Below, piece after piece: positions 4,717 to 51,164 of a DNA stretch of 64,000 nucleotides (its first letter is position 1; each line of letters begins with the position of its first letter). The position numbers and the translations under genes were made by a program. Origin of the DNA: Porphyra umbilicalis (lineage: Eukaryota > Rhodophyta > Bangiophyceae > Bangiales > Bangiaceae); the NCBI GenBank assembly GCA_002049455.2, contig KV918878.1, positions 1-64,000 on the forward strand, read 5' to 3'. Below the pieces are notes generated by a model that saw only the letters and a list, made by a program, of their open reading frames with translations, was not told where the DNA came from and did no database searches.

Positions 4717-4932
4717 TTCCTTCTCTACTGTGGCTTGGCCCCGTGAACGACGTCCTGAGCGTCCATCACGGCGGAACAATGCTCGTCGTCACTCGGGTGG
4801 CTACCTCCAGCCCCCCTCCGAGGCAATCAGACTGCCGGAGGACACGCTGTGGGCGTGTACATCGGCCGCCCGCACCCCACTTAAAATCGGCGGCTGACCG
4901 GCGGCAGCATCGCCCGTGGCGGCCGCCGCCAC

Positions 4933-5996
<1,064 letters not shown>

Positions 5997-6883: not shown

Positions 6884-6891
6884 CTAGGCAC

Positions 6892-22299: not shown

Positions 22300-22314
22300 G
22301 GCGGCGCCCTCCGC

Positions 22315-22345
<31 letters not shown>

Positions 22346-30478: not shown

Positions 30479-30859
30479 TAGGGTTGCTCAGAACGCCCGG
30501 GGCGTCGTTCAGGGCGTCGTTAAGGGCGTCACCAGGGCGTCATTTGGGCGTCGTGCGCCCCGAACGCCCCAGCTCAAAAGGGCGTCAGCAAGGCGTCGCG
30601 AAGAGATAGTTTTCAGGGGGTCTACATAATTCAGCAGGTGGCGGCTGTGCACCTTGGTTGAGGACATGCACCCAGTCTTGACACAAAAATGACATAAGAA
30701 AGGAACATATGGGTGCCACCTGACTGATATTGCGAATACTGAGTGTGCTACTTGGGGCGTCGTGAGGGCGTTTTGGCTGCCTAATGGGGCGTCAGTAAGG
30801 CGTCTTATCCGTCGCGCGCCCCTGACGCCCCAGAAATAGGGGCTTCGTGTGCAACCCTA
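30479..30859. mobile_element. Non-autonomous hAT-like element, 381 bp
   Basis: Ends TAGGGTTGCTCAGAACGCCC and (reverse complement) TAGGGTTGCACACGAAGCCC. It has a perfect 8-bp target duplication CTCGCGAG (30,471-30,478 and 30,860-30,867). The paralogous site at 4503-4510 has a single CTCGCGAG with no insertion, proving the insertion happened in copy 2. GGGCGTC motifs are repeated near both ends. No ORF of note. Confidence 0.95.
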
Positions 30860-31794
30860 CTCGCGAGGCCTGTCTCGCTGACGGAACGCCTCGCAACAAC
30901 AATTGGTGCAACAAGGTCCCCAGAGTGACGGCTGAAATTGAACTGAAAACGCGTTTGTGGAACTGCGGGCACGTTCGCGAAGATACCCTGGCCTTAATTT
31001 TCTAAACAAAAGGAAGTAAGTGTGTCCAGGTAATTCAAAGCAATGTCCAGCCAACGGCGAGTGGCCTCTGTTTGGCCCAGGAAGACCTCAGTTCTTGCGG
31101 CGAGAAGGTGCCACCAGTCTCCAAGGGGCGCATTCGATGCGTTTCCAGCTCGCATTCGGCTCTCGGCACGGCACCAAACGGCCAATTTCTGTGCGTGCCG
31201 CGGATTGAGCCAATAGGAAGCCAAGATACCCTCTCCTGAACGCCGCCTCAGGCCGCTCTGGCTGTCGCCCGGAATTTGCGCTTTCGGCCTGCAGAATATA
31301 TTGGACGCATGCAGCGCTCGATTGCCGCCGATCTTACAGAGTTTTTTTGCCCCTGCAAATTGACTGGCCTCAGATTGGGACATTGACTGGCCCTCCTGAT
31401 TGCTTGGGGGCACCCGTCGGCGGGTGCTCTGGGCCCGCTACGCTCTCGGGTCGGGTCCTCGACGGTGGGGAGCGCCGCCCCCGGGGCACCTGCAAGGGAC
31501 GCTTCTGGGTCACGTGAATGCCGCTGTGCGTCAGCTCATCAATCGCGCGAGATTTTCTCCTCTCCCGCCAGCTTGCGATTGCGCGCCCCGTGCTGCTGGC
31601 GCTTGGGCCGGTCCCACGCAGGCCCTCGGGGTGCCCCGCTCTTGGCCTGCCCGCGTCGTCGCCGCCGCTCCCGCTGCGGATGCCGACCGCACTCTCTGGC
31701 GTTGCTGGTGTCGGTGACTCCCGCCCTTCCGCCCTGATGCACGCGCTTGTGCCCTGCTTGCTGCGCCTTTGAGTCCTACCACGTTGGATGCGCC

Positions 31795-34700
31795 ATGGTG
31801 TCCGCAGGCGTGCGTGCCGCGGCCGCAAGGACGTGGAACTAGCTGTTGCGCTTTGTAGGCCCGGGGCGCACGGGTCCTGTCTCCCTGGCGCGGCTGGAGC
31901 AGATCTTGGACATGATCGAGCTCTTTCCCACCAACAACACCGACTTCAACTTTCACGTGCACGTGTCGGGCTACGACACCACGGGAAAGATCTTCTGGCT
32001 GCAGGTGTTTGAGGACCCTAACGTGGTGGAGAGCGCTTCCGCCACGCAAGTGCTGAGCATGTTGTACCGGTACGTCGAGAGCGCGAACGGCATGATGGCG
32101 GCGTCTGGCTCCCTCCTGGCGCTCAAACCCGCGTCGGCCGCAACCGCACGCGACCCGCTTGACCTTGGTCATCCTCTGACCACCACGGACGACGAGCTGG
32201 TCGCGCCTGCCGGCGGAGGGGCGGCCGGAAGAGGGGCGGCCGGCGGAGTGGCGAGCGGCGGAGGGGCGCGGAGGGAAGGGGCGGGGGTCGGAGGACGCGT
32301 GAGCGGCACGCTGGGGGATGGGAGAGGAGGGCGTAGACATGCTGCCACTAGGGTGGGAACCGGCAGCGACGGAGCCGCAGCAGGCGGCACCATACGCGTA
32401 GCCGGTGGCGGCCCCATTGGCGACTTTGCGGCAAGAGCGGCGACAGCTTCTCAAGCCGAGTCCGCCGACCTTGCCCGCGCTCAAGCGGCTGCTGCAGCAG
32501 TGTTGGAGGCCGACGACGACGCGGGTCATGCCGAAGACGCGGCCGCCGGGGCTGAGGCTGTCGGCGCGACCGTGGCCAGCGGCGTGGTTTTGGGGGGTCG
32601 TGGTGTGGTTGTGGGGGGTTGTGGTGTTGCTTTGGGCGGCGGTGACTTGTCGGGGGGTGACGCGTCACTCTATGCTGCGGGTGGCGCCCCGCGGCCTGCT
32701 GGCCCTGTCGACAGCGGAGACGACGTCGATGACGACGACTCTGGCGACTCGGGCGACTCAAGCAGCTCTTCAAGGTCTGCCTCGGAGGGAGCGTCAGACG
32801 CTACGCGGCGTGGCGTTGGCAAGCCGAAGATGAAGCAAGTCGGCGGCCGGCCCAAGAAGCGGCAGCGCTGGCAGCGCCTAGCCCCGGTGATGCACCACGC
32901 ACCGGCGAGCCACATCCCGACGTCTGACGCCAAGGACTTGCTGCGAGCCATGCTGGACGCGTCCACCAACCGCCTAACGCGTCTACGTTGTGCCCTAGTT
33001 AAGGGAAACGCGGCTGTTGCGGGCGGGATGTCCGCGAGGCGGTTGCGGATCTGCTTGCCGTGGTGGCCGCGGCAGGCTATCAAGGACGCGCCGTGGCCGT
33101 TGGGCGTGGTTGTCGACAAGGACCTCATCGTTTTGGCGTGCGCCAAGGATTCGTCTACTATCAACACGGCGACGGTAACAGCGGTCCTTCCCAAGATCAC
33201 ACTCAAGCGCAAAGCGACGGCCAGGCAGCGGCTGGCCGAGTTTCTTCTCCTGGTTGAGAAGTCGCCGGCGGCGCGCGCGGCTATGGAAAAGTACATCTCC
33301 GGCTTTTCCCAGTCAGCGAGGATGCAGGGCAAGGCGCGCGCGCCCGTGCTCGGGGTGCTTAGTGGGCTACGGACGGCTCCGCGCATTGCGCCGTCGCCTG
33401 CCATGCTTGCATCCCTGCAGGCGGCTCCGAGGCGACCCGGCGAGACGTTCTCGTCTGAGCCCCGGCGCCCTGCCGGCTTTGTGCCAACAGGGTCCCCGCG
33501 GCCAACACATGTCGCACGCTTGGCACCTGAGGAGCTGCCCGCCCCGCTTCCACCAACCCACCCCGCCGCTGTGCGCGCCGCGGCCGCAGCTGCAGTGGGG
33601 ACGGTCACCCCTGCGACCCCCGGGAAGGCCACATCCGACAGCGCATCCATCCGGGCGGCGCTGCTGGCCCGGGCAGCGGGTGCAGCTGCTTCCAAGGCCG
33701 CTCCAAGTGGTACGAGTGCAAGTGCTCGGGCTGTTTCTCGCTTGGCGCCGCCAGGTGCAGCTGCTGCCAAGGCCGCTCTAAGTGGTACGAGTGCAAGTGC
33801 TCGGGCTGTTCCTCGTTTGGCGCCGCCGGGTGAAGCTGCTGCCAAGGCCACTCCAAGTGGTGAAAGTACAAGTGCTCGGGCTGTTGCTCGTTCGGCGCCG
33901 CCAAAGTCCTCAACCTCGACACCCGCTGCTCCGCCTATGCTTGTCTCATCCACAAGTGCTACCAAAACTGGTGCTCGACCGCCACCTCCTGCGAGAGCGG
34001 CAGCTCCGCCGGCAAAGACGAGTGCGCCGCCATCCGCGCCGCCTCGTGAGCCTCCGGCACGATCAGTTGCTTCTGGTATAGCTATAAGACGACCTCCGAC
34101 CCTCGGACCACCTTGTGCTCCCGAGTCGCATGGGTCTTCAGCAAATGCGCATCCGGTCTGTTCTCGACCGCGGCCGCCTGCACTCGCGGCAGCTCCTCCT
34201 GCGACACGGCCAAGCGCACCCCCGTCGGCACCGCCTTGTTTGCATCAAGGAGCGTCGGCTGCTTCTGCTACTACTGCACCACGACCGGCGCCTCCTGGAC
34301 CTCCTGCTGCTTCGCCTTCGCCTCCTCGGCTGCCGGTTCCCGGACCTGCAGAGAACGATGGTGTCGCGAATGAATTCTTTTCAGGACCTGCTGGAGCCGA
34401 TAGTCGGCGGAAGATGGCCCCTGGTCATGCACCATGTGCTTTACCCGTGGCGGCTGCTGCTGCTTCAGGCACATGTACCTCTCCCTCGGAGTCCCCTTTC
34501 TCGACCACCCCCTGCTCGCCAACTGGTAGTCCGGCGTCGACGACACCTTCAAGAGCGCCATACTCAAGCGCGGCACCGGCACCATCCGGTGGCAGCTGCG
34601 CTGCCGAACTTTCACCGCCGGTCGCTGTGGTGCGCTCCAATGCAAGGACGCACCTGTCGGACCGGCCGTCGCAGTTGCCAGCAAAGAAGAAGCCGGCTAC

Positions 34701-34995
34701 AGCATCATCTGGCAGCACCGGCCTTGCCACTCCACTGAGTGTAGCGCGGATGCCTCTGCCACCGGGCGGTGGCACACCACGGGGTGAGACCAGTCTGGTA
34801 ACCCCGGCGGCTTCGTCTTCTCGGCGCCCTCCGCTGCCGCCTCGCCACTCGCCATCATCAAGTGGCATCTCACGCAAAGCTGACGGCAAGGCGGTGGAGC
34901 ACCAGACGGTCCGAGTGGCGGGGGGGGCTGCCGCGGTTGAGAAGGGAGGGGAGGCCAAGGCCAACGCAGCTAACGCACGCAAGGCCAACGATTGA
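31795..34995 (+). pseudogene. Large unknown ORF of the giant element, early TAG
   Basis: ATG 31,795 (CGCCATGG context) reads 15 codons to TAG 31,840-31,842, then stays open in the same frame to TGA 34,993-34,995 (1,066 codons in all). The TAG is one C-to-T step from CAG. The first about 100 residues after it are protein-like (LEQILDMIELFPTNNTDFNF, GYDTTGKIFWLQVFEDPNVV). The middle has an acidic Ser/Asp patch followed by a basic GKPKMKQVGGRPKKRQRW stretch, and a second compact region (ICLPWWPRQAIKDAPWPLGV, then KRKATARQRLAEFLLLVE). The last third is Ala/Pro/Ser-rich with three 25-residue repeats. No family recognised; the basic region could bind nucleic acid. Same strand as the MUS81-like gene. 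Confidence 0.5.
33682..33906. repeat. Three tandem 75-bp coding repeats
   Basis: Three in-frame copies of a 25-residue unit containing SGTSASARAV and APPG. The third copy is more diverged (SGESTSARAV). Confidence 0.85.
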
Positions 34996-35110
34996 AGGCG
35001 GCGAGGGGATGTTGGCGGGGCAGCCGCTGGGGCGGACGGTACGGCAGCTGCCTTGACAACCGGGGTACGCGGAAGCTTGGTCGACAAGCGCCGGCGGTCG
35101 ACAGCGGCCC

Positions 35111-35737
35111 GTGCATCGGGCCCGTCATGAAGGAGCGGGCAAGAAGCGTCGCCGCAAGGCGCACTACAATCTGTCGTTGTTGCCGCTGCACCCCCAGCAG
35201 GAGGCAAGCGCGCGCTCACCCGTGCTGTTTCGGCGGCCGCGGCCCCATACTGCTGTCTCGGGGGCGGCCGCCGCTGAAGCTACTGCTCCGGTGGGTTCAA
35301 CCAGGAGGTCAAAGCGGGGTCTGCGCGCCGCCGAACTCGCGGCTGTTGGCCTGGAGGTCGCCGACCCGGCTCCAGCCGTTACCCGCAAGCGGGCTGCGGC
35401 CACCGAGACTGGTGCTGCATCTTCCCTACCCCGCAAGCGGTCCCGTCGGCTGGCGGACCGCCTCATCTCTACGGCAGACGACTCCATCGGCCCAAGTACC
35501 ACCAAGCCGTCGTCGAAGGAGCGTGCTTTTGAGGCCGTCCCCAACTCTACGACGTGCACGCTCATGTCGGAGCTGTCCGTGCCTGTTGCTACCGGGCGGC
35601 TTGTCAAAGACATGCACTCTTTCTTCGGCCGGCGGATTGACCGGGACGTGGTCACCGTCACAATCACGGCGGTCTTGGACGAGAACCCATACCCGTACGG
35701 CTCTCGCTACCCTCTCCCTGGCACTGGTAAGAAGACG
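35111..35737 (+). CDS. Unknown ORF/exon of the giant element
   Basis: Open frame of about 209 codons with two nuclear-localisation-like clusters (STRRSKRG and PRKRSRRLAD) and a C-terminal block TLMSELSVPVATGRLVKDMH, FFGRRIDRDVVTVTITAVLD, ENPYPYGSRYP. It has no convincing ATG at its start, and at its end are two good splice donors in a row (GGTAAGA at about 35,726 and GGTATGT at 35,737). It is therefore probably an internal exon. Whether it joins the 31,795 ORF or the MUS81-like gene is not clear. No known domain. Confidence 0.4.
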
Positions 35738-38141
35738 GTATGTATGAGTTCGCTGGTTGGCACTGTGGTAGTGTGGCCGATAAGCAGCCTTACGTATTGA
35801 TTGTCTGTTGTACTTTCCCTCTCTTGTCTTGCTCAAAAGCATGCACTTGACCGCAGATATGCCTATCAAGCGCGACACCACTGCTCCGCTTAGCAAACCA
35901 ACGACTTGACCGACGAGACCCGAAAGTTTCGAGTAACAAACTCCATGGGGCGGTGACTCATGTATCCGTGACGAGGTTCATACTATAAAAGCATAAAGGC
36001 AGTCACACACATGTCGCCGCTACAAGAAAGAAAGATGCATAAGAAGGCCAGCCCCAATAAACTACAAAGAGAACTTGAGGCACGAATGTATGCGCGACAT
36101 GGCAACGCCATCAGCATGGATGGCCGGCATATTGACAGCGCAAAACAGAAAACGAGTGACAGCACGAGGCAAATTCTCCCGTCCCAGCAAGTCGGCCAGC
36201 CGGCCGATGGAGAAAGGACCTTTGTGACGGCAATGTGAACAGCTGAGGATTCCATAGCACTTTTTTCATCCGACACCCCGCATCACCGGCCGCGCAACCA
36301 GTGACGGTTTCAGTCGTGTCGCCGACGGCGCTCACAAAATTGCCGCAGGCCGCGCCGTCAACCTACTCGCAGCGCCCTCACCTAACACTCACACTAGTGC
36401 TACCGCTGCCCACCAGCGGGGCTGGTCCGCCGCCAGAGGCGGTTGCGGCGGCTCCTCGTCACTAACGGCGGCCGAGTACGCTCCGGCGCCCCCAATCGGT
36501 AAACACCAGCAGACGCTAAAACTCATGCCCAACCCAGACAGCCCTGCCTGCCGCCTTTCACGCTCACGAACTCCCAATCCAAAAGAAAGGCGCCGGCTGA
36601 CGGCGGTGCTCGTTGGCCCGGCGTCGTGCGGCCGACTGCGCTGCTGACTTGACCCCCGCCCCCTATCGCCCGGTCGACGCACTCTCTCGGCCCGCTCGCA
36701 TCGAGGCGTCCACCCCCACGAAGACCGCACCACGCCCACGTCCCGATACGGACCGCGTCAGCGATCAACACTACAGATGGTCGCCGAATGCCGTGCCAAG
36801 CTGGACACACCGCGGCTCGAGTGGGTGTCAGGGTTCGATAGTGGGGGGGCTATCGTCGTTTGCAGACTCTCCCCCCGCCCTCACTTACCCCCTCTCAAAA
36901 CGTGCTGACGATGAACCACCGCATCGACAAGCGCTTCCTTGCACAAGGGACCAGCGCGCACAGTCGCGAAAAATAGACCGCTCTGCTTTCCAGAAAGAAG
37001 CGCGGCGAGAACGGTTGCACCTGCGACCTCCCCCCTCCCATCAAGATCCACGCGGGGGCGGCGGGGGTCCCCACGGCGGTGCTGGCAGCTGTGGCGCCCT
37101 GCCAGTACACAGCGGGACACCCTCCATCAATGGCAGCACGCCCAGCTGTCTCAGCCCTCCCAGATCTCGTGCCAGTGTGGCCTCGCCCGACACTTCCAGA
37201 TCCCCACAAGGCCGGCGCGAGCGCCGACCGTGATCATCGAATGATTCGCTGGTGTGGTGCTGCAGACACATCAGCGTCCACTGCCAGCCCCTGCCCCCTC
37301 ATGTGCCTTTCTGCGTCAGGAACCAGGCCAGTCGCCAGTGGAGTAGTGGCCCTGCTGCCGCCACGAAAGCTACAAGCTCAGACCGCTGGCCGCTTCGGCC
37401 AATCAGCCTTCACCACTGGGGCATCGGAGGCAGAGGCGTGGCTCTCAATTTTTGGGCGGGACGCACGTGCCTCAGTGGAACGGACGAGGCAGCCGCAATC
37501 CAAGTGTCGCTCAGCAGCGAGAACGGTCTTCGCGCGACCCAATGCACATAACCATCCCAGCGCGCCAGAAAGCCTCTCAGCAGCAGGGGGTCGCTGCTGC
37601 GCGAATCTGCCACCGCCGTGTCCCACAACCCTGACCTGGCTCGTTGACAGTGGAGCATAGCGAGGATCCGACGGCCGAGGTGCCGGGCCTTCGATATCGA
37701 TGATGCATTGCAGGACTTCACATATGCAATTAACACGGCGAGAAACCCACTGTGAAGACATTGTCTGGCGAAGAGGCCCCCCTATTCGGGCGCTTCACCG
37801 AGATATGATGCCCCATTTGGATCCAGATCGACCTAACGGCTGTCGATCTGTGGTCTCTAGCTCTCTCGTTCGCCCACGATTCACACCCCTCACAGTTAGC
37901 TGGCGGGTGCTTGCAGGCACCCGCCACTAACAGATTTGCGCGGGCTGCGGGACACCGGCCCTCCGCGACGTACCACCACCAACGGGTACGATGCGTGCCC
38001 CCTCCCCCCCTCGCTCTACCTCCAGGTCGCACGCCCCCTCCGCATTGCCGATCTGCCTCTCAGTGCCCCCCCCCACTCCAACTTCCCCTCGTTCCTCTCA
38101 CCACTTCGCCTGCTCCCATCTTCGGCCGTTGCGCAGGCGTG
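35738..38141. other. Non-coding interior of giant element
   Basis: No gene supported. Intron and intergenic candidates; less GC-rich around 35,800-36,250. Confidence 0.5.
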
Positions 38142-39818
38142 ATGGCTGCACGTGGTCATGGCAACGGTGATACGGTTGGTGCCGCTGGAAGCGGCTCCAC
38201 CGGACCGCCTCCGCCGCCGCGCACCCCATCTCTTCCTGAGCCAGGAGCCTATCCTGATACTACGGCCACCAGCGGTGTGGCACAGATGCGGCGGCTTTGT
38301 AGTCTTGGATTCCCCACCTCTGTTGCTGTGGCTGCGGTCGGGCCCGAGCTCGCGGGCGGGGCTGTGAGTGCCGGCGGTCGCACCTTCGAGGACCGCAAGA
38401 CGGATCGGGCCCTGGATACCATGCGCCTCCGTGGTGGACCTGTGGTCGACGTCGGGCGTGCTAGCAACGGTAAAGGTGGCGGTGACGACGCGGGTCGTGT
38501 CGCAGCGAAGGCACGTGCACGGCACGGTGCTGCCAGCGGCGCGCACGACCATGGTGACAGCGGTCGTTGTCATCATCGTCATCGACGACGATTGCGGGGA
38601 CGCCCTACAGTCCCCTGCGAGGCAGGCCCTCGCGGATCGCGAGGAGGCCGCGTTGTCCGCGCCGACGGCGGTGGCCAACTCCGGCGCCAGCGCCATCGTC
38701 GTTGTCGACGACGACTCCCACCCTGCTATGGACGCCGCCGGTGAGATGCTGTCTGCTGTTGTCGACGACTGGCCCGAGCACGGCCGTGTCGGCAGCCACC
38801 TGCAGACGGCGGCCGACCTCATGCGCACCTTCCCCGTTGCCGGGACCGGACCAACTGCACGTAACAGCAGCGGCATGGCGCCCGCCCGCAAGCCGCTGGC
38901 ACTGACCTACTCTCCGCAACCTTGGTCTAGCGGGCCGCTGGCTGCCGCGGTCTTAATTCTCGTTGACGACCGGGAGACGGCTCGCAGTGGCGCAAGGCGT
39001 CCAAGCTGCGCCTCAACCCTGGGTTGGCCTACCGGGTCATCACGCGTCGCTTGCCGACGGGCAATGCCGTGCTCGTTGCGCGGGTGACAGCCGCCGGCGC
39101 GGCCGCTTTTGAGGGTGCCCCCCCTGCGGGTACAGAGCTGATGCTGGACACCATCATTGAGCGGAAGACTGTCGCGGATCTTGTGGACTCCCTCAATGAC
39201 GAGCGGATGCCAGAGCAGGCATACTACATGGCGGCCTCTGGCTGCCACCTGCAAGCCTTCGTGGTTGAGAGAGTCGTGGTTGCCACCCTCGCGAGCGACC
39301 GAGGCATGCTGGCGGAAGTCAACAAGCTCCTCTCATCGCTGGTGGTCACCACCGACCTGTTCATCCAGCACACGCGCAACATTGAGGAGACGACTATCTT
39401 ATACTCCGCGGTCGTGTGGCACCGAGGCCGCCGACTGGGCACCCGTGACGGAATGGCCAGTTGGCTGCAGCATCAATACGTCAAGGACGACACCGTGGGC
39501 GGGCGCGCCTTTCTCACCTACTCGCTTTGGGAAAAGCGCACCAAGCTGATGCGCGGCGAGATCTCACTGCAGCAGTTGTGGGCGTTGCAGCTAAGTATCC
39601 TGCCTGGCGTCGGCCTGGTGTGCATCGACTACATCATAGAAGCCGGCTTTGAGACGCCTGCCTCCTTGGCTGCGGCCTACACCAAGGTGCCGTCAAAGGA
39701 GGACGGCAAGATGCTGCTGGCACGGATACCGCCGCCGACTGGGGGCAACCACATCAGCAAGAAGGTGTCTAAGTACCTGAACGACCTTTTCACAGCCAAG
39801 GAGTACGCGGGTCACTAG
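38142..39818 (+). CDS. MUS81-like ERCC4-family structure-specific nuclease
   Basis: Three frame segments give one protein plan. From ATG 38,142 an N-terminal part includes LCSLGFPTSVAVAAV (UBA-like). In the next frame comes DDDSHPAMDAAGEML, then LILVDDRE (38,950-38,976), the first ERCC4 motif. After a frame change at about 38,980, the rest follows: RRLPTGNAVLVAR, then the catalytic DTIIERKTVADLV (39,147-39,185, motif ERKxxxD), EQAYYMAASGCHLQAFVVE, and a C-terminal helix-hairpin-helix region (LSILPGVGLVCIDYIIEAG, TPASLAAAY). This is the order in MUS81, which cleaves branched DNA in a complex with EME1. The nuclease residues are intact. The frame changes may be introns (a GTAAAG donor is near 38,470) or indels. 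Whether it is captured cargo or part of the transposition machinery is unknown. Confidence 0.72.
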
Positions 39819-42621
39819 AGTGGGGGGGTGAAGAGTCAGGACGACGGGTGGATAGTAGAAGGGGGAGTTGTGGTGCGGGTGGATGTGCGGCGACGCACGA
39901 ACGGCTCAGGTTGTCCCATCAATCAATATGTATGCTTATCTGTTTCTGTGTACTCGACACCCCGCGGTGGACTGGTTCTCCATTCAGCACAGCCTTGACA
40001 GAAGATTGCTCGCTCCTGCCATTCAGCAGCAGCTGATCATGCCGCGGTGGACGGGTTCTCTATTCAGCTCTGCGCTCACAGAACGGAGCTCTCTTCTGCC
40101 ATTCGGCAGCAGCTGGATACTGCGGAGCCCGGAATGCTGGTGGAAGAAGCGTGCAGGAGGACGCTGTAGGGTGGAAAGAGCACGAAGATGGCAGCGCCAG
40201 CGGGGGGAGGTGCCTCCGTTACCCGTTCGTATCCTTCAAAAGGAACAGCTTCGTCATTACACTCTACGGTCAGATCCCGTACCTGGAGCCAGCATGCTGG
40301 GCTTTTGGGAGCTTCAGTCAAGCGCGCCTGCGGAACTCGCGCCTGCGCACCCCCACACGAACGGGTACGTATGTGGCTAAGACACACAGTTGGCCAATCT
40401 GTGGTGGACGATGGGCACGCAGGCACCGCCCGTGCAATTGAGGTCGCTTCCTGTCTAATAGTTTGAGAACTGCTACAGTAGCGACAGCTGTCGTGCTTTG
40501 GCGTTGCTACGTCTGAGAAATGCGCACCACAGTGCGCAATACCTGCGAGGCGAAAGGCGCTGGGTGCGATGGTCACTAATCGTTTGGCTGTCCCTCGCGC
40601 GTGCCCACAGGCTGGTTTCTATTCTATCTGCTAGACAACGGTTACCACCCGTGCTGTGGGGAGCGTGACCGTGCCCAACAACCAGCAAGTGACCTGTACA
40701 GACCGCACCTCTCGAAGGACTTGGCCTTCAGGGCGCTCGACCGGGGCCAAAACACAGAATCTATTAGAAGCCTGCCAACAGCCGTCGGCCAAACCCAACG
40801 ACTGATGGCAGCGCCGCAGCGCGCTGATCGTCGCCAGGCTCACAGCCCTGATGGCCATGTATATCTGCCGTGCTACCGTCCCGGGTCCGCTGCAAACCTA
40901 TGGACTTAGCACAGATCAGCGGCACCGCAAACATGAACAGCTAAAGATGCTATGACCATGCACTACAATCATACTTTTGCGCCGTGCCTTCCGTGGAGCA
41001 CCTGTAACGCCGAATTCTCCTTGGTGCCCTGCTCCATGCTGCCGATGCTGCCTACGAGATCACCATCATTCGAGGCGATAGCAAAATAGCCTCCTTCGCG
41101 TCATTCCACAACAGCGACCAGTATGACGCCTCCCGCCGACTGTCAGTCTGGATACGCCGCCCCTGGCTCCTTACTGATGAGTGCGGGCGAACAGTCCATG
41201 GCGGCTTGTAGCGCAGGCAGTAGCCCGGTTGATGAACTGGCCTGCTTGTTTGTCGTCCATCGAGTGGGGGCTACTCAACAAAACTCTTTCGGCGTAATTC
41301 TTGGGAGTACTGCAGCTATAGTTTCCAATGCTCCGACGAAGGCCGCTCATCCGGGATCGTGGTTTAGGCAGGCAGGGTCGCTTGTCTGTAAGCGGTCCCT
41401 TCTGTGCTCAATGGGTGAAACGACACTGGCTCGCGATCACCAGGCGCTTGCAAGCCCGATCTGATCTGTCCGCCGATGCGCGGCGCAGCGCCGCAGCGGC
41501 GGACGCCAGTCTGCGGCACGTGTGCTGGCTTTGGCCGTCGTCAGGCGTCCCCTGTCACTCACCGTCGCTCGACGGCTCCCGCTCATACGCGTGGCGTGTG
41601 CTTGACGTCTTTCGTCGTCGACGTCACATTCCCCGGCCAGCGTTTAGGCTGCTGCTGTGTCTTGCTCCGGTGCAGGGCCTGGAGCTCTTGGGAGTGATGG
41701 AGGTGCCCATTGGCATTGGGTCCGCGGTGGGTGACGTCGGCGCGTGCTGCTGGAGGTGCTGGGGCCTTGGTCGCGGCCCCCTCTTGTTCCCAGTTGGCTC
41801 GGCGGCGTGGATTCCAATGGACCGCTTCTTTCACAGCAACCATTGCTGCCGCGGGCACCCGCTTCACTCCGCGGCCCCGCTGGCGACCTGGCTCCACGCC
41901 TCGAGCAGCCGCATTGCTGATCGGGCTCCTGTGGACAGGTCATCAGCGTTGCTCTCTTCTCTCAACGTGTACTCCACTGTCTTTATCACTCGGACTCTAG
42001 CACTGGGTCATTGCGCGAGCACGGTTGAGGTGTTACGCGCTGGGAGCTGATTTATGCTACCGCCGTCTCAACAGCAACCGGGGAGAGAAGATGAGATTGA
42101 CAGGGGTATTTCTGGCCAGCGTAACCCGCTGACTGCTGTTCCTATGCCCACGATGCGCTTTCTTTTCTTTGAGGTTTGTCGTGGTCGTGTCTCCTTGCTG
42201 TAGTCGTATAATTGCCGCGGCGCGGGTGCCCACCACCCTCTGAGGCTGGAGTCCGGTCCTGCAAAGACGGCATTTGAACGTATCGGCAGCGGCTGCGTTT
42301 GAGGTGGGGGTCGTGGCGGCCGTGTCAACGGGCCTTGCTGCCGCCTTTTGTTTCCATATCTCCATACATTATAAACCGCCCAGTTTCTCTGTTTTCCTGT
42401 TTGATACGGGACCGCGTCCGGACCAAGCTCCCTCGCGACAGCCGGTAGGCGTTCCTTACAATCGTGAGTCCCTCTCCCGGGCTTTTGTCCCTTGCGTGTT
42501 CCCCGTTGAAGTTGATGGGGAGCTGCCACTGTGTCCAACGAGTGATGCAGTGGAAGGAGAACTGCGACTGTGTCCAGGGTTTGTCGATTCTCTGGCTTCT
42601 ACTCTTTACTTCTAAGGCTTC
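39819..42621. other. Non-coding interior of giant element
   Basis: No supported gene between the MUS81-like and transposase genes. It contains an 80-bp tandem duplication (39,962-40,121). Composition is mixed and less GC-rich; short frames are not protein-like. Confidence 0.5.
39962..40121. repeat. Two tandem 80-bp units
   Basis: Both units begin CCGCGGTGGAC and include GGTTCTC(C/T)ATTCAGC and CTGCCATTC(A/G)GCAGCAGCTG. Confidence 0.8.
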
Positions 42622-44425
42622 TCACACCTTCCTCTCTAACCCGGATTGCCCTACGCGCTTCACCTCGCCTCTGCACGGGCACCCGTCACCCATCTCGCAA
42701 TGAATAACAATGAAGTGATGGTAGAACGTTTCAATCGGCTTGTGCTGGATCACGACGCCACTTGTGGCCTCCCCAGCGGGGCGCAACGCGTTGGCCTGCT
42801 TGGTTGCCTCGCGCCGCTGGGACGTCCGGATGTTGTTGTGTGCCGCAATGATGCGGGAGCGTACAATAAAGCGGCGCTTGGTCATGCACGAAAGACTGCT
42901 CTTCGAGCGCATCTTGATCGAATGTTGCCGCTCGGCGCCCGACGTGTCGTGCCCACGCGAGAGGTTTGGGTACTGGTCCGCGTTAAACACCGGCAAGCAC
43001 GTGTGGTTGCACCTGTGAAACCGGTCAATGATCCAGGCGGTGCACGCACCGTCCATCATCCAGGGCACGCGCCGCTGGGCGTTGCGTTCAGCTTTGCAGG
43101 CGGTGTCGAAGTGAACGACCCGGGGAAACCTTTGAAGCCGCTGCCCGCGGTCCGCCACGACGTGCGCGGGGTTTTCGGTCTCCCTCAACAACTCAAACCC
43201 GACAATGTAGCCGCAGCCACACACAAACGTCACAACCCCGGGCGCGAGAAGCACGCTGTCCGGGAACGTGTGCCGGAAGTCGTGCACGTCCCAGGCCTTG
43301 ACCCCCTTCACCTTGTCGTCTTTGTTGCTGTCCTTGTCCTTGTCGGCCTTCTTCCCTTCCCGCTTGCCCGCAGCTTTGGCCCGCTGCTTCTCCGCCGTTG
43401 TGTCTTCAGGGAAGCCAAGGAGGACGGGCCTGCCTGGCCAACACTGCCCCGTCCGCAGCTCGTCGGCCTGCTTCAACACGCGGGCCTTGGACGGCCCTTT
43501 CGCAACGACGTGAGTCACCGGCGGTTGGACGCCAATGGTGAGCAGCCACTCCCGGTAGGTCGCGGCGTCGCCGACCTCCCACTTGTCGCGATACGCCTTG
43601 GCGACTGGCTTGGCCGTGGACGCTCAGCGCACCATCGTCTCCTCCTCTGCTGCAACGCAGAGCAGCATGAGCTCGCCGACAGCTTGGCAGAGGTTGGGCT
43701 TTGTGACCATGGCCGAGCGTACAAGGAGAAGGAACTGCCACACGAACACGACAGGCGTCACGAACGGCGCCAGTTGAATCCACTCAGAGCTGGACGCCCG
43801 CGAGGTGAGCGCCCGCGCCAGGACCTCCACGTCGACGAGATCGCAGCCAATGAACACGTTGAGGACGCGCTCTGCGAGAATGGCCGCCACGAAGGACAGC
43901 ACGGTCATCCACCGATCCTTGTCGACGTCCGCGTCGCCCGAGTCGGGAAAGAAGTCGGTGCAGACGCACAGAACCTCTTCCACCTCTGCATGGCTCGGGG
44001 CGGTCGACGGGCGATAAGCCGCCCACCAGCACCGCTAGACCCACCGTCCCACCTTCGATGAACGGCATATCCGCTGCAGGCGGCTCAGCGGCGGCCTCAT
44101 CGGGAGGGCGGTCGACGACCACCGACCTGGTGTAGGTCGCCGACTCCTCCTCGACGCCGACGGTCTTCCTGCCGACGACGGACTCCCCGTCGACGGTCCG
44201 TCCCGAAGGAGCGGACGACTCGGGCTGGTTGCCCACGAAGCACTCGCCGGCACACACGGCGTCTGCAGCCAGCCTCCGTCCCGGTACCGACGCGACGTCC
44301 GACACCGAGGCCGGGTTGCGGTCGTCCACGGTGGGGGCCAGGGACTCCGCGTCGGACGACATTGCAGCTGCGGCCGCGACCGCAGCCGCCGCCGCTGCCG
44401 TCGCCGCGTCGGCGGCGGCAGTCAC
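42622..44425 (-). pseudogene. KDZ/HMGXB3-like transposase, one stop and one frameshift
   Basis: Reads right to left. An Ala-rich and acidic start (44,425 to about 44,000) is followed by a frameshift near 44,000, then one frame to 42,622 with a TGA at 43,624-43,626 (CGA-derived if deamination). The core has VVTFVCGCGYIVGFELLR (Cys-x-Cys), VVHFDTACKAERNAQRR, DRFHRCNHTC, YPNLSRGHDTSGAERQHS and a basic RRFIVRSRIIAAHNN. These blocks (CG..GFELLR, FDxAC, HxxC, SGAERQHS) are the pattern I know from KDZ-type transposases and from the C-terminal region of animal HMGXB3 proteins; the Asp of FDTAC and Glu of GAER are likely catalytic. It would mobilise the element. Family name rests on motif memory. Confidence 0.6.
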
Positions 44426-44960
44426 GGCATCGATCGCTGCGACCGAGCGGGCGGCTCGTTATCGCGCTGCGCCGCCGCTGGCGGCCCCAGCCATGATAGG
44501 GAGCCAAAGAGGCGGGCGTGTCGCGTGCCAGGGGCCGTGAGAGAGAGGGTTGAGCGCAGCGGATGGTGGGAGGGAAGTTGGGGGTGCAGATGGGCTGCCA
44601 GCGTGCCGTCAATGGCAGGGCAGAGCGTGATGGAGGATGGAGGAGATGGTGACGTGGCACACGAGCGGCAGGGCCGCAGGCTACGGCGGGGTAGAGCCCG
44701 GTGGAGGGTGAGGGGAGATGGTGGGGTGGATGACGCTCGACATGGCTGCCGTCAGATACAGCGCCCATCTAGGGGGAAAGCGGGAGGAATGGTGGGAAGG
44801 CAGGTAGAAGAGGTGGCGGGGCGGCGAGTGGGATGGAGGGTGGGAATACAAACACGCGGCAGGGGTCGCGGGACGTTGGCTTCCCTGTTGTGGGGACTCA
44901 GACGGCCGCCTGCATGAGGTCGCGAGCCTCAGGGGGGGGTGAGCATCGGACGCCCATGAC

Positions 44961-45300
44961 GTGGCAATGGCATTGTGCCAGACCGGGCACGAGAAGGGGC
45001 CCGATGTGGGGCGGGGGCAGCCAAAGAAAAATGCCCCAGGCATAGGCTGGGGAACGGGGTCCACGGCGGCAGTCACCGCGGCAGTCACGGGGGGGCGACA
45101 GTCACGGGGGGGGCATGCGGGGGGCGGAGGCCCATGTCGGGGCAATGGCAAGGCGCCACGCCGGCCTTGAGAAGGGTGACCGTGGGGGGCGGGGGCAGGC
45201 AAAGCAGATTGCTGAAGGGATTGGCGGGGGAACGGGGTCCACGGCGGCAGTCACGGGGGGGGCATGTGGGGGGGGGACAGTCGCCAACATCAGGCTGCGC
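44961..45300. repeat. Tandem repeat, period about 176 bp
   Basis: Two units, each running from GGCAATGGCA through GAGAAGGG and GGGGCGGGGGCAG to GGGGAACGGGGTCCACGGCGGCAGTCAC. It lies between the two minus-strand genes, upstream of the transposase, where regulatory repeats would be expected. It is G-rich with several runs of 6-9 G. Confidence 0.75.
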
Positions 45301-45888
45301 CACGAGTGGCTGCCCGCCCATCAAAGTGTGACCGCGTGCGTGGCATCGAGAGCGCTCCTGAGGACCGTGAGACACCCCAACGCACCACGGCAGGGGCCAC
45401 GCCGTGGTGCGCCAGGACCCAAAAGATCATGTGGCACCGTAACGTCCGAGCACCTGGGCAGGTCAGGGAGGCGGTTTGTGGCCCTGTTGACGGGTGGTTC
45501 ACAGCTGGCCGTGGACACGGTGCTGACGGCAGATTCCATCAGCAGTGCGGCAGCGGGGCGCTACCTTTCAAGTTCAAATTCGTCATACTTGCTTTCTCAT
45601 TGTTGGGCGAGCTTCACTTGACCTCCACTGGACCACAGGGACGAGGGGCACAGTTGATGTGCTGTACACGCAACGGCCGTGCAATTCCGTACTTCTGAGT
45701 CCATTTTTAAAGAACTTGAGCATAAGGTCGCCCCCCCGTCTCTCTAGCACCTGACTACGTCGGGACGTGCGCGCGGAGAAGAGTATCGGTACCACGCCGA
45801 AGTCCCAGACGCCAATCGGCCGCGACGCCGTCCTTTGCAACACATAGTCAAGCGGGCGCGCAGGGGTGTCTACATCGTTGTATGCCGG

Positions 45889-48800
45889 CTAGAGAGCGAA
45901 AAGAAACAGAAACAAAACGTAAATCTTGCACAAACGACCAAAGCAAGAGACATGTAGTCCTGCCATCTCTCCCACGTACACCACCACCCACCCCTTCCCC
46001 CCCATTCTCTTCGCCAGCAGCTCCGCCGCAATTCGCCGAAGGTAGTACGCCGTGCTCCGCCTCATGGTCCTTGGGTCCAAGCCCTGCGCGATGTAGTTCA
46101 TGTTTATCACCGTGAAAACGCCGCAGTCATCTGCGTTCTCCTGGGCGCGACACCACACGTGCTCAACCGTCCACTCGCGCTGTGGCGTCTTGCAGTGCTC
46201 GGCCTCGTCGACCAGCCAGAGCCGCACGCTCTCTGCGACGCGTTCGTTCCTCGCGCCCAGGGATTCGTACAACGAGATGGTACCCGCGCGATGGTCGACA
46301 GCGACCAGGATCCAATGCGTGTTTCAATCGTTGACGGGGATGAAGAGCTTGTCCGTCGCCAACGCGTCAAAGTTCTTTGTCCACCGCTGCATCGCATGGT
46401 AGGAGTACTTGTGCTGGTGCCACAACTTGGCGTAAAAGAACGTGTTGAAAAAGTAGGGGGTGGGCGCCGTCGGGTCGTCCGCCACAGTGCGGTCATTCTG
46501 CAACTGCATCAGCGTGACCACGCCGTTGATGCACTCGTCGCTGAGCCAGTTGTACGGCATGAGCCGCTCAATCCCTGTAAACGAAACGGGGATCTTGCCG
46601 ACCTGCACGATGGTGAAGAGGCCGCGCGTGCGCGGCCGCTTGCTTGCCGCCAGCGTGGCGGAGACGGCGCGCTGCGTCAGCGGAGACGCCGGGTCGGCCT
46701 CTTAGATTGCCACCGGGTTGTCCCTGTTGGCGTCTGCCGTGCCCGCCGGCTCCTCGACCGACAAAAGAGGCACCCGCCAGCAGTCCTTGGTCTTGGGCCC
46801 CACATCCTTGACGGACTCCGTGACACACAACTCATCGGCCGCGCCGTCCGTGCCGCCGGGCTCAGAAAGCAAAAACTCTGAGCCGTCGCCGGTCGAGGGC
46901 GGCGTCACGGGTAACGCATGCGCGACGGCCTCTAGCGCCATCGTCTGAACGCCGAAGCCCAGCGCCAGGTGCTCTTCAACTGCACCCCCAGCTGCAGAGT
47001 CCCATGGCAGAGTGCCCGCCTCAGCGGTGCCCCCCTCGGTATCTCGGCCGACTTCCGTAGATGTCGCGTCCTCCTCCGTGTCACTACTGCTGCTCTAGCC
47101 CGCAGAGTTCCCCAAGACACCGCTCGAGTACTTTGAGGAGCGTTTGGCCGACTCTTGTTGGACGCCGCCATCGCCATCACTGACCAAGTCCACAAAGCTC
47201 CCGTCATCGCTTCTGGTCGACACCTGCGCCACGTCGGTGGCGCTTGCGGCGGCAGCAGTGGCGGCGACCGCGGTAGGAGAGTGAAGGTTGCGCACGAAGA
47301 AGAACTCGTGGAAGAGTTTCGTCGACGCCCACTGAAGGGCCTTCTCTTGTTGCTCCCGCGTACGCAATTCCCGGCTCTCCTCCGTCGATGCAGGTGGGGG
47401 GGCAGGTGGGGTCTCGCTTAGGACAGCAGCGAAAGGGCGGAACTTGAGGATCTCACTCGCGGTCACCGAGACCGTGTCCGTCGCGCTGGAGCGAACGCGG
47501 TGCCTGATCACCGCACGCACAGTGGCGTTGCGGACGCCACAGGCGTAAGTCATGGCCATGTTGGCCCTCGAGGCGTCCATGTCCGGCCGCAACATGGGCT
47601 TGATGTAGTCCTGCAAGACTGCGAGGATCTGCCCATCGCCAAGAATGCAGTTAACGCGCCCACCCTCCGCCTCATCTTCGCCACAGTCACCGCATTGGAA
47701 GGCCACGTCGGGGACGACCAGGGTCTCGGTGAACTCGCCGACGGCTTTGGACACTTGCTGCCGCGCCTGACCGTCCTCCCTGTCGGCGTTTGCGCCCGTG
47801 TTGCGGAGAAAACCTGTCAGGTACTCCGATGCCGCCGCCATCGTCGAGCGTGCAATGACGAACACTCCCAGCACGTCGTCTAGGAACACGCGCACGTAGA
47901 TCGTCTCAGGGGCAGCCGCAAACAGACCGTCCTCGGCGCCTTCATACTCCACCAGGTGACCGCTGCTGCACGTCCACGTGCCGACGACGACTTTCAGACG
48001 CCCGCGCATGGTGTATAGGTCCGCCTTTCAAGTCTGGATGTCGCGTCCACGACTAGGTAGCCCGCACACACGGAACTCAGGCTCCAGATGCACGCGCTCC
48101 AGTTGCCGGAACTCGCCGCCGTCCCTGAAGCTATCCACGGCCGCGCTGTACGCGTCCCACAGCGCCGCCTCGGCCGCACACGGAATCAATTTCCTCGCGC
48201 GTCGCTGTTGGGGGAGCTTGTCTGGCTTGGGGACGGGCGTAGCAACGGCAGCCCGGCGCGCAGCGCCAGGAGCAGCAAAACGGGGCTTCTCCTTGTCCAG
48301 CACCCCGTCGGGGCCGAGTGAGAGCCCGTTCTCGCGGTCCATCTCTGCCCTTACCGCCACGGACTCGGCGTCGACGAGCGTGTTCTTGTTCACCGCCTTT
48401 GCGTGGATGCAGCCCCACGGCCGCGATTTGCACGACAGCTGGCAGCAGGTGGCGAGCTTGAACTTGTTGCTGGTTGGCCGGATGAAGACCGCCGTACACA
48501 TGCTGTCATAGCGCACGGCGTAGATGGGCACGTTCCTGCGCCTGCCGGCCATCAACACGTGGTAGGTGATCGTCGGCGCCAGCTCCTCGTCCCTCTCATC
48601 GGAGCGGTGTTGCCCGAGCGTCATAGAGAGCATCGTACAAAAGTCGAAGTAGGTAGTGGCGCCAACGTCTATGGCCATGGAGTCATAGGCCCGCAAGAGC
48701 GCCAACGCGTGCCGACACGTGCTTCTCCGTCTCAGCGCCGCCTGCATCTGGGGGTACTCCATCACAACCTCCGTAAACGCCGAGCGGCCGTTGCCAAGCA

Positions 48801-49254
48801 CGCCCGAGCAGCTGCAAAACGCCAGCATGCAGGAGTTGGAGAAAGGTGACCACGTCACGATGGGGTCGAACGCCTCGACGACGACGAGCACTTGAGCGCC
48901 GTGTACGCACGCGCCCGTCACGGCCGGCGTGGTGCCCATCCGTGCCGTCATACCGACAGCCACGGCAACCTCCGTCTTGTAAAACTCCATGAGGACATCT
49001 TCCCCGATGGGAAGGCGGTCGGCGATTAGGGCAGCCGGTGGACGTCGATGCACCGACAAAGGCGCACCAGGAGCAAGAGCAGGGTGCGGAACTCGGGTAG
49101 AAGTACGAGCCCCGGAAGCCACGTTGGGGGCAGTCGCCGCAAGAGCGAAAGCAGCAGTGTCGCCGTAAATGGCATCGTCGGCGTTGGCCGCCATTGCAGG
49201 GGCTGCATCTAGGGCCATGTCGGCGGCAGCTGCGTTGGAAGGCGCCGCGACCAC
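45889..49254 (-). pseudogene. Cysteine-cluster plus Ulp1 (C48) protease ORF, four in-frame stops
   Basis: A single continuous frame of about 1,120 codons with no frameshift but stops at TGA 48,028, TAG 47,095, TAA 46,702 and TGA 46,324. N-terminal half: Cys/His clusters (CMLAFCSCSG then CRHALALL; CCQLSCKSRPWGCIHAKAV), SWIM/CxC-like. After the first stop: GTWTCSSGHLVEYEGAEDGLF and FQCGDCGED followed by ILGDGQILAV, both typical of KDZ-associated proteins. C-terminal: a Ulp1/SUMO-type protease with LMPYNWLSDECINGVV, YFFNTFFYAKL, RWTKNFD, catalytic HW (46,312-46,317), Asp in LVAVDH, and the catalytic Cys in QENADDCGVFTVIN. Ulp1 domains accompany KDZ transposases and may act on SUMO-like modifiers. 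The left limit (49,254) is where the frame opens, not a verified ATG. Confidence 0.7.
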
Positions 49255-50552
49255 CGCGACAGGTGCCGCCGTCGGGGCTGCAGCGGATTGAGCATCCCTC
49301 CCGCCGCCCCAGTCGAGGCCCTGGGCGTTCTACAAGCCCCCCCCATCGTCGGTCGCCGCCTCCTCACTGGTGACCACGTCCTCGTCTGTCCCTTCCTCCC
49401 CGCTGGTGCCCCCCCCCCGTCAGTAGCGCCCTCCCGGTCGGTACCTCCCCCAAGGTGGATTTTCCGCCCGAGATCCACCCCTAGTTCTCCCCCAACATCT
49501 CCATCGTCTCCATCGTCGCCATCCACAGCTTGCACATCCCGGTGCGTAACGGCAGTCGGGTACAGTGAGTAGCCGATCAGGATGATGGTATCTTCGGGCC
49601 CATCGACAAAGAAGGGTGGGTTGGCCACGAAGCCGCAGCGAAGATGCGACCGCCGCACATCGTGAAAACTTGGACGGCATGAAGGAACCTGCGGGGTGGC
49701 ACGCAATGCAGCCGTGGGAGGCACTGTCTGCGTCCGCCCCTGCAGTGGTCTGGAGCGTTTACGGCGGCGGGACATCAGGCGGCGAGGGTGAGACGACGGC
49801 CGCAACGAGTTCAACCGCGCCCGCACCCGCCAGCACGCACGGCCAAGCAGCCGGCGGAGGAAGGCAAAGCGAATGGCGGCCGTACGACAGGCGACAGCGG
49901 TGGCGATCGTGGCGCCCGCGGCGGGCACGGGCGCCGGCGGGCCAGCGGGCGCGGGCGCCGGCGGGCCAGCGGGCGCGGGCGCCGGCGGGCCAGTGGGCGC
50001 GGGCGCCGGCGGGCCAGCGGGCGCAGGCGCCGGCGGGCCAGCGGGCACAGGCGCCGACGGGCCAGCGGGCGCGGGCGCCGGCGGGCCAGCGGGTGCGGGC
50101 GCCGGCGGGCCAGCTGGCGCAGGCGCCGACGGGGCAGCGGGCGCGGGCGCCGGCGGGCCTGCGGGCTGGGGCGCCGGCGGGCCAGCGGGCGCGGGCGCCG
50201 GCGGGCCAGCGGGTGCGGGCGCCGGCGGGCCAGCGGGTGCGGGTGCCGGCGGGGCGGCGAACGCGGGCGCCGGCGGGGCGGTGGAGGCAGGCGCCGGCGG
50301 TGCGGCGGACGCGGGCACGGCTTGGCGGCGGACGTGGGCGCGGCGTGGCGGCGGACGCGACGGCGGATGCCGGCCCGCTGGAAGCGACGACCCCGCTTCC
50401 ACGCTCGACAGGGAGGGGTCGCGTGACAGGGGCGCGTGTCGGCTGCCTTGCAGCGCGCCCAGAGGCGGTGACCAGTGTCCGCATTCCCGAGAGCAACCTC
50501 GATAGATCTTCCGGACCACTAGCCTCTCACCAGTGGTCCACGGCCTGATCAC
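49209..50552 (-). other. Pro/Ala-rich frame overlapping a 24-bp minisatellite
   Basis: A 447-codon frame. The centre is a PAPAGPPA repeat caused by the minisatellite. Downstream of it is a more protein-like piece (VRRSHLRCGFVANPPFFVDG, EDTIILIGYSLYPTAVTHRD, then an Asp/Gly-rich run). That piece could be the real N-terminal part of the cysteine-cluster/Ulp1 protein in a shifted frame. Low confidence. Confidence 0.3.
49915..50335. repeat. 24-bp minisatellite, about 17 units
   Basis: Units of GGCGCCGGCGGGCCAGCGGG plus GCGC with small variants, encoding GPAGAGAG on the plus strand and PAPAGPPA on the minus strand. The period is a multiple of three, so frames stay open on both strands. Confidence 0.92.
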
Positions 50553-50929
50553 GACTGAACGTGATTTGGCGAGCTATTTTGCAGGTCCTCCATCGGCCCG
50601 GCTGACAGCAACTTTGAGCTAATGAATGATCGATATTAAACATGCGGGCGCCCCTCCCAGAGGGCCGCTACAGGGCCCGAAGAATTGAGCCCTTTCCCGC
50701 TGAAATGTAGGGTCGAGTTCGTAAAACCGGATCGGTACCAAATCCCAATGCCGCTTTCAAGGCCCTGTGGTGGGGTACTTGTCGGCATCTGATTGATGGC
50801 CCGATTGGCACACAAGGGATGGTTGAATCATGCTGTGCCGAGAGTCGATTCCGGGCTGAAAACGCGTCGAATGAAGCCCATAGAGCCATACGGTCACATC
50901 TCGCCGCAAGATCGAGGGTCCTCCTTTGC
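50336..50929. other. Right end of giant element
   Basis: No gene. Holds the right inverted end; the conserved core TCTCGCCGCAAGA is at about 50,900-50,912. Confidence 0.6.
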
Positions 50930-51164
50930 GTCTGTTTGTCATTCTCTATTGTGGCTTGGCTCTTTTCGCCGTCTTTGCACCGTGAACGACGTCCTGAGCG
51001 TCCATTACGGCGAAACAATGCTCGTAGTCACTCGGGTGGCTACCTCAACCCCCCCTCCGAGGCAATCAGACTGCCGGAGGACACGCTGTGGGCGTGTACA
51101 TCGGCCGCCCGCACCCCACTTAAAATCGGCGGCTGACCGGCGGCAGCGTCGCCCGTGGCGGCCG

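What the first reader, a model, noticed from the sequence alone, without database searches (positions are those of the whole stretch)
31074..50929. 19.86-kb KDZ-like transposon with its own empty site in the same window
Seen: segment A-B is continuous at 4,709-4,716, but in the duplicate it is split by 19,856 bp. Flanks are CTCTGTTT/GTCTGTTT, and the two ends are inverted relatives of each other over about 95 bp (shared TCTTGCGGCGAGA, CATTCGA-GCGTTT and CTCTCGGCAC blocks). Inside are a KDZ/HMGXB3-like transposase, a Cys-cluster/Ulp1 protein, a MUS81-like nuclease and two unknown ORFs. Known: KDZ elements make 8-bp duplications and often carry Ulp1 and cysteine clusters. Inference: a multi-gene giant KDZ element in an alga, dead in this copy.
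Basis: partly seen in the sequence, partly recalled or inferred. Interest (0 to 1): 0.92.

Follow-up and report, generated by a model that had tools for sequence, protein, structure and literature searches.

The report
Giant algal transposon with repair nuclease
This is a dead copy of a 20,000-letter jumping gene in an alga; apparently intact sister copies carry four genes, one of them a DNA-cutting enzyme of the kind cells use to untangle branched DNA, which I found reported for no other jumping gene of this class in the papers I could search.

Summary
31,074-50,930 is a 19,857-bp insertion with ~100-bp imperfect inverted repeats; its empty site lies at ~4,716 in the same window. The duplication is 7 bp (TCTGTTT), not 8: perfect in 6 of 9 copies examined, 6/7 in two, partly off-contig in one. 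Other copies in the same genome (83.8 Mb, light-harvesting genes) have such ends: C475 and C11 (21.0 kb; 97.5-99.5% identical to C60, 20.5 kb, in the segments compared), and C53, C181, C88, C248 (19.6-20.0 kb). C60 has four long open genes: an unknown "left" protein, a MUS81-type ERCC4 nuclease, a KDZ transposase core, and a Cys-cluster/Ulp1 protein. In the window all four are broken. The nuclease gene is no chance passenger: it lies 2.4-3.1 kb downstream of, and convergent with, the transposase at 9 of the 11 best transposase loci and at none of the next 17; its active-site residues are conserved in 21-22 of 22 homologues; pairs at informative distance show purifying selection. Giant KDZ elements are already reported in algae. 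The MUS81-type nuclease, the two-ORF layout, and 7-bp duplications with long inverted repeats make this a new variant. Its proposed role, processing branched transposition intermediates, is inference.

The parts
31067..31073 (.). left target-site duplication TCTGTTT (7 bp)
   Evidence: single copy at the empty site 4,710-4,716
31074..50930 (.). whole element, 19,857 bp, degenerate copy
31074..31173 (+). left terminal inverted repeat (~100 bp), starts GGCCCAGG
   Evidence: other copies at C287, C422, C21 (91-94%)
31795..35797 (+). left gene, protein of unknown function, broken: conserved blocks 31795-32202 (in-frame stop at 31,840), 32869-33510 and, in another frame, 35360-35797
   Evidence: tblastn with the C60 protein; stop; no Pfam or PDB match
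38692..39815 (+). MUS81-type ERCC4 nuclease gene, broken: blocks 38692-39060 and 39000-39809 are in different frames; conserved GD reads GN
   Evidence: Pfam ERCC4 6.7e-13
42625..43971 (-). KDZ transposase core gene (gene 2), one in-frame stop at 43,624-43,626
45991..49676 (-). Cys-cluster (CxC4-like) plus Ulp1/C48 protease gene (gene 1), in-frame stops at 46,324, 46,702, 47,095 and 48,028; the block 49,533-49,676 lies in another frame
   Evidence: Pfam C48 2.8e-22; CxC4 at E 0.011 in the intact relative C516
50831..50930 (-). right terminal inverted repeat (~100 bp), outer end CGCAAAGG
50931..50937 (.). right target-site duplication TCTGTTT (7 bp)
4710..4716 (.). empty target site TCTGTTT in the paralogous segment

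Best explanation
The insertion is a dead member of a lineage of ~20-kb, apparently autonomous KDZ-class transposons whose intact members encode four proteins: from the left end, rightward, an unknown protein and a MUS81-type structure-specific nuclease; from the right end, leftward, a Cys-cluster/Ulp1 protein and a KDZ transposase core. Shown: ends, 7-bp duplications, near-identical copies at different sites, long open frames, co-inheritance of nuclease and transposase, and selective constraint on both. Inferred: the KDZ protein, helped by the zinc-cluster protein, binds the ~100-bp inverted repeats, cuts, and inserts with a 7-bp stagger. The MUS81-type nuclease then processes branched strand-transfer or gap-repair DNA, as a second nuclease. 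The Ulp1 domain removes SUMO-like tags from the transposition complex or host silencing proteins. The window copy inserted at TCTGTTT, most simply after its host segment duplicated, and could now move only if helped in trans.
For: Empty site and TSD. Sister copies C60, C475, C11, C53 with both ends; C60-C475 98.9-99.5% identical over four segments totalling ~10.9 kb; the C60-C11 match stops at the element's right end (C11:193,260) though the contig goes on. C60: open frames of 1475, 738, 720 and 1444 codons; C516: two open genes. Further full-length elements C181, C88, C248 by their ends, transposase and ERCC4. KDZ assignment. MUS81 assignment: profile E 3e-23 to MUS81, 1e-3 to XPF. ERCC4 gene 2.4-3.1 kb downstream and convergent at 9 of the 11 best transposase loci. 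dN/dS 0.06-0.19 in 9 of 10 transposase pairs; 0.23-0.37 in 11 of the 12 ERCC4 pairs with dS above 0.7.
Against: No transposition was observed and no RNA was seen. The C516 and window transposases have no Pfam KDZ hit themselves; only 5 of 42 homologues do, best 25.7 bits against a cut-off of 26.6. The structure prediction was too poor to test for an RNase H fold (pLDDT 48). CxC4 is below its cut-off. Complete intact gene 1 was read in C60 and C516, the complete left gene only in C60; at C475, C11 and C53 only their end parts were seen, and at C181, C88, C248 neither was looked at. The genome-wide searches with gene 1 and the left gene did not complete. C473, with the tenth-best transposase, has ERCC4 pieces only 15-17 kb away. 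Many transposase pairs have dS above 1, near saturation; dN/dS among near-identical copies is undefined or uninformative (0.55-2.5 at dS <= 0.013), and one ERCC4 pair (window-C181) is at 0.50. The role of each accessory protein is inferred from its family.
Confidence: 0.85

Rival explanations
1. The MUS81-type and left genes are passenger or host-directed cargo (as TET/JBP in fungal KDZ elements), for instance steering repair of the donor gap to regain copies, and take no part in transposition chemistry.
For: Fungal KDZ elements carry accessory genes (PMC12730594, passages and one section). The C422 derivative has both ends but lacks transposase and nuclease, so neither seems needed in cis.
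Against: Fixed position and orientation next to the transposase at 9 loci of differing divergence, with constraint. This does not exclude a host-directed role.
Confidence: 0.4
2. The interior is a chance nest of unrelated elements inside a simpler KDZ element.
For: The window copy has ~7 kb (38.06-45.14 kb) that C422 lacks; nested insertions are common in giant transposons of Ectocarpus, KDZ included (PMC12477816, passage).
Against: The extra 7 kb contains transposase and nuclease, present in the same order at other loci that have both ends; C422 is best read as a deletion derivative.
Confidence: 0.05
3. The split of the A-B segment is a rearrangement or assembly error, not a transposition.
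For: The host segment is itself a duplication, and the filled copy has ~380 bp near 30,480-30,860 that the other lacks.
Against: Inverted repeats plus 7-bp duplications recur at unrelated sites.
Confidence: 0.03
4. It is an integrated virus or virus-derived element.
For: About 20 kb, several genes, a protease of the Ulp1 type.
Against: Six-frame Pfam of the window copy at E 0.05 gave only C48 and ERCC4, no capsid, polymerase or packaging family; no relative of the transposase was confirmed among viral contigs.
Confidence: 0.02

Closest known systems
KDZ superfamily (Kyakuja-Dileera-Zisupton) DNA transposons
   Same: homologous transposase core; Cys cluster of CxC4 type (weak); inverted repeats as in Zisupton; 7-bp duplication as in two fungal Kyakuja families (PMC12730594, passages and one section read)
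   Different: those fungal Kyakuja have CA..TG ends and no inverted repeats, Zisupton and a Dileera family make 8-bp duplications; here ~100-bp repeats, outer ends GGYCCAGG on the left and CGCAAAGG or CACACAGG on the right, transposase core and Cys cluster on separate ORFs, MUS81-type nuclease and no TET/JBP hit
Giant KDZ elements of algae (Ectocarpus to 30.3 kb; Chlamydomonas reinhardtii 31.7 kb, seen to move)
   Same: size class, algal host, accessory genes (PMC12477816, passages; the Chlamydomonas paper itself is not held)
   Different: the terms ERCC4 and Ulp1 do not occur in the Ectocarpus paper's main text; gene content could not be compared further
MUS81 (XPF/ERCC4 family) Holliday-junction and flap nuclease
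   Same: DDRE, GD, ERKxxxD motifs; the profile alignment runs through the C-terminal part of the MUS81 constructs
   Different: transposon-borne, one ERCC4 gene per element, no EME1-like partner recognised in the element, long low-complexity N-terminus
Tn7 TnsA+TnsB two-nuclease transposition (recalled, not from a call)
   Same: idea of a second nuclease next to a DDE-type transposase
   Different: bacterial, unrelated nuclease fold; analogy only

Membership tests
KDZ transposons | transposase core homologous to PF18758 | tested here: met
   hhalign of 42 homologues vs 4 KDZ ORFs above the Pfam cut-off: prob 99.4, E 3.1e-21, 204 columns; direct Pfam hits in 5 of 42 homologues, none in the first member, none for the window or C516 protein
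KDZ transposons | associated Cys cluster (CxC) | tested here: inconclusive
   CxC4 E 0.011, 16.0 bits vs cut-off 26.9 in C516 gene 1; not seen in the window gene 1 at E 10
KDZ transposons | target duplication of 7 bp (fungal Kyakuja) or 8 bp (Zisupton, Dileera) | tested here: met
   7 bp perfect in 6 of 9 copies, 6/7 in two (C422, C248), C475 4/4 visible; it does not fit Zisupton or Dileera
Kyakuja subgroup | CA..TG termini without inverted repeats (as in the fungal members described) | tested here: not met
   GGCCCAGG...CCTTTGCG and ~100-bp inverted repeats
KDZ transposons | RNase H-like catalytic fold (recalled) | tested here: inconclusive
   AlphaFold2 pLDDT 48, pTM 0.32; fold not searched
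MUS81 subfamily of ERCC4 nucleases | ERKxxxD active site with D/E and GD residues (role recalled) | tested here: met
   DDRE, the D of GD, R, K and the last D in 22 of 22 homologues, E of ERK in 21, G of GD in 21; the window copy has GN
MUS81 subfamily of ERCC4 nucleases | closer to MUS81 than to XPF, with C-terminal HhH region | tested here: met
   3e-23 vs 1e-3; Pfam EME1-MUS81_C only 0.0045, below cut-off, in the window protein
MUS81 subfamily of ERCC4 nucleases | EME1-type partner and structure-specific cleavage | not testable with these tools
   needs biochemistry
Ulp1/C48 proteases | C48 domain with His-Asp-Gln-Cys residues (role recalled) | tested here: met
   C48 8.5e-28 in C516 gene 1; residues present in C60 and C516, Asp is Glu in the window

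The most novel reading that the evidence does not exclude
A eukaryotic DNA transposon lineage that uses two nucleases: a KDZ transposase and its own MUS81-type resolvase, which cuts branched transposition or gap-repair intermediates and so lets very large elements move or regain copies.
Probability: 0.35. Interest if true: 0.85.

Novelty: new variant of a known kind. Interest (0 to 1): 0.68.

Why it matters
How 20-kb DNA transposons move and how their DNA intermediates are resolved is, to my knowledge, largely unknown. A transposon lineage that keeps its own MUS81-type nuclease beside the transposase makes the question testable with a defined four-gene set from near-identical, probably recent, copies, and adds a DNA-repair enzyme to the known cargo of KDZ elements.

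Tried and rejected
Looked for KDZ directly by Pfam in all six frames of the insertion: none. Structure of the transposase: low confidence, not pursued; structure of the left protein never accepted by the queue. Looked by eye at whether gene 1 and the transposase could be one spliced gene: the stop at the end of gene 1 lies at about the same place in C60, C516 and C422 and I saw no shared splice donor, so two ORFs is the simpler reading, not proved without RNA. Viral contigs: 47 pattern matches, none a relative by tblastn. Whether the strongest ERCC4 hit (C17) is a host MUS81: it is nearest to XPF; a host MUS81 gene was not found. Papers: Iyer 2014, Bohne 2012 and Lopez-Cortegano 2023 are not held and are known here only from citations. 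No paper reporting an ERCC4/MUS81 gene in a KDZ element appeared in the listings of searches (listings show the top 40, 20, 15, 15, 12, 13 and 1 rows of 68, 205, 60, 63, 31, 13 and 1 papers); Repbase was not available.
Full report
Observation. The window is G000:C118:1-64000 of an 83.8-Mb assembly in 665 contigs. The segment at 2.6-10.4 kb recurs at 28.6-56.6 kb, interrupted by the insertion. The joined flanks align across the junction to the uninterrupted copy; further left, beyond ~30,860, the two copies differ for ~380 bp. The two ends are imperfect inverted repeats over ~100 bp, score 68 against a maximum of 46 among 4,920 random interior pairs.

Duplication length. Nine copies with both ends located were compared: window TCTGTTT, C60 TGGCGGT, C11 ACATCCG, C53 GCACGTC, C181 AAGAACC and C88 GTGATCG are perfect over 7 bp; C422 and C248 match 6 of 7; C475 shows 4 of 4 before its contig ends. 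The next base agrees in 2 of the 6 perfect cases, so it is read as part of the element (terminal G), and the duplication is 7 bp.

Other copies. The left-end query found 8 places, the right-end query 6, including C422:14,923-27,740, a 12.8-kb copy lacking window 38.06-45.14 kb. C516 holds open gene 1 and gene 2 but is cut by its contig start. C60:268,024-288,520 has inverted repeats and open frames of 1475 (left), 738 (ERCC4), 720 (transposase) and 1444 codons (Cys-cluster/Ulp1). C60's ends recur at C475:22,189-43,164, C11:193,260-214,240 and C53:219,270-239,256, and partly at C114. At C475, C11 and C53 the left gene's start lies next to the left end and gene 1's start next to the right end, with transposase and ERCC4 between; the C11 transposase has two in-frame stops. 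C60 and C475 are 98.9-99.5% identical in the four compared segments, C60 and C11 97.5-98.5%, C60 and C53 72-84%. C181 (19,820 bp), C88 (19,612 bp) and C248 (19,817 bp) are further full-length elements, judged by their ends and by transposase and ERCC4 between them; their gene 1 and left gene were not looked at.

Transposase. Gene 2 of C516 has at least 73 matches in the genome, some loci giving two, and 42 homologues at E <= 0.001 among the 8,000 candidates scored from a database of 5.8 billion proteins. Neither it nor the window protein hits Pfam KDZ; 5 of 42 homologues do at E <= 0.1; of ten rescanned, three do, at 1.1e-5, 1.2e-4 and 9.4e-4, all below the cut-off. Four ORFs of the same genome that exceed the KDZ cut-off were aligned and compared by profile: probability 99.4, E 3.1e-21, 204 columns. 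The shared blocks include YFDTAC/FYDVAC, DRxHxxxHTC and AExQHS. The genome has 28 PF18758 matches, 19 over the cut-off, at places other than the 73.

Nuclease. The ERCC4 ORF resembles MUS81 (1.6e-12 for C60 alone; 3e-23 for the profile of 22 homologues, with XPF at 1e-3). In that alignment DDRE, the D of GD, and R, K and the last D of ERKxxxD are in 22 of 22; the E of ERK and the G of GD in 21 each. Pfam ERCC4 rings at 15 places in the genome: one is nearest to XPF (C17), the other 14 are among the 16 matches to the window protein, some of them broken pieces. I set 28 of the 73 transposase matches (the best by score) against 15 of those 16 ERCC4 matches: ERCC4 lies 2.4-3.1 kb downstream and convergent at 9 (C181, C248, C88, C53, C60, C475, C12, C11, window), all among the 11 best; the other two of the 11 are C516 (contig ends too early) and C473 (pieces 15-17 kb away). 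None of the next 17 has one near; one of them has an ERCC4 piece 19 kb away. This fits one acquisition in one sub-lineage; no tree was made.

Selection. Transposase dN/dS was computed for ten pairs (last 440 codons or fewer): 0.06-0.09 in five (C516 with C181, C248, C88; C248 with C181, C88), 0.16-0.19 in four involving C60, C140 or the window, and 0.36 for the near-identical C181-C88; dS exceeds 1 in seven of the ten, so these values are rough. Three near-identical pairs among C60, C475 and C11 have dS 0. ERCC4: 0.23-0.25 (C53 with C60, C11, C475), 0.34-0.35 (C181 with four others), 0.35-0.50 for the five pairs with the decayed window copy; near-identical pairs give 0.55-2.5 at dS <= 0.013 and say nothing. 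C248's ERCC4 did not match the motif search and was dropped; C53, C12 and C473 were dropped from the transposase comparison for a missing or short frame, C11 for a short one.

The window copy. Gene 1 has in-frame stops at 46,324, 46,702, 47,095 and 48,028; gene 2 one at 43,624; the ERCC4 gene changes frame around 39.0 kb and reads GN for GD; the left gene has an in-frame stop at 31,840 and changes frame before its last block. Since the empty paralogue is uninterrupted, the simplest order is duplication, then insertion, then decay, or insertion of an already broken copy in trans; excision from the other paralogue is not excluded.

Host. Ten light-harvesting matches; the one tested is nearest to antenna proteins deposited under red-lineage names such as ACPI, CAC and FCP (that these are red-algal, cryptophyte and related proteins is recalled). 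The species is unknown: the rRNA search did not complete.

Mechanism. Shown: a mobile unit with constrained nuclease and transposase, four genes in the copies read. Inferred from families: KDZ cleavage and integration with a 7-bp stagger; zinc-cluster DNA binding; SUMO-protease action; branched-DNA processing by the MUS81-type protein. The left protein has 7 relatives in the protein database, one of them the window's own, and none of known function; no Pfam or PDB match.

Known or new. Giant KDZ elements in algae and accessory genes in fungal KDZ are in print (PMC12477816, passages; PMC12730594, outline, abstract, passages and one section; PMC8226300 reports Zisupton and Kyakuja in Chlamydomonas relatives, passages). 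An ERCC4/MUS81 gene in a KDZ element was not found in the searches named under Tried and rejected. I rate it a new variant of a known kind.

Noticed in passing
G000:C422:14923-27740 (L015-L016): 12.8-kb derivative with both ends that lacks transposase and nuclease: a likely non-autonomous deletion product.
   Followed up: partly
window 2645-10393 and 28604-56610: Host segment duplicated in the same contig (95-98%); the filled copy has ~380 bp at 30,480-30,860 that the other lacks.
   Followed up: partly
window 22313-23409 and 58260-60390: Long GC-rich tandem arrays (19/38-bp and GCC-like units), similar to each other in inverted orientation at about 66-70%.
   Followed up: no
L056 (C273), L057 (C244), L058 (C66): Three related left ends share the same 20 bp of outer flank, so they are probably copies of one insertion carried by a larger repeat or duplication.
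   Followed up: no
G000: 28 PF18758 matches, e.g. C104, C172, C342, C24: A second population of KDZ transposases with ORFs to ~1200 codons; none of the 16 ERCC4 matches lies on those contigs.
   Followed up: partly
G000:C238:9581, C191:15110, C143:59561: ERCC4 genes of the transposon type without a listed transposase match on the same contig; possible further derivatives.
   Followed up: no
window 33679-33903 and 49921-50316: 75-bp (3 copies) and 24-bp (16 copies) tandem repeats inside the left gene and upstream of gene 1.
   Followed up: no
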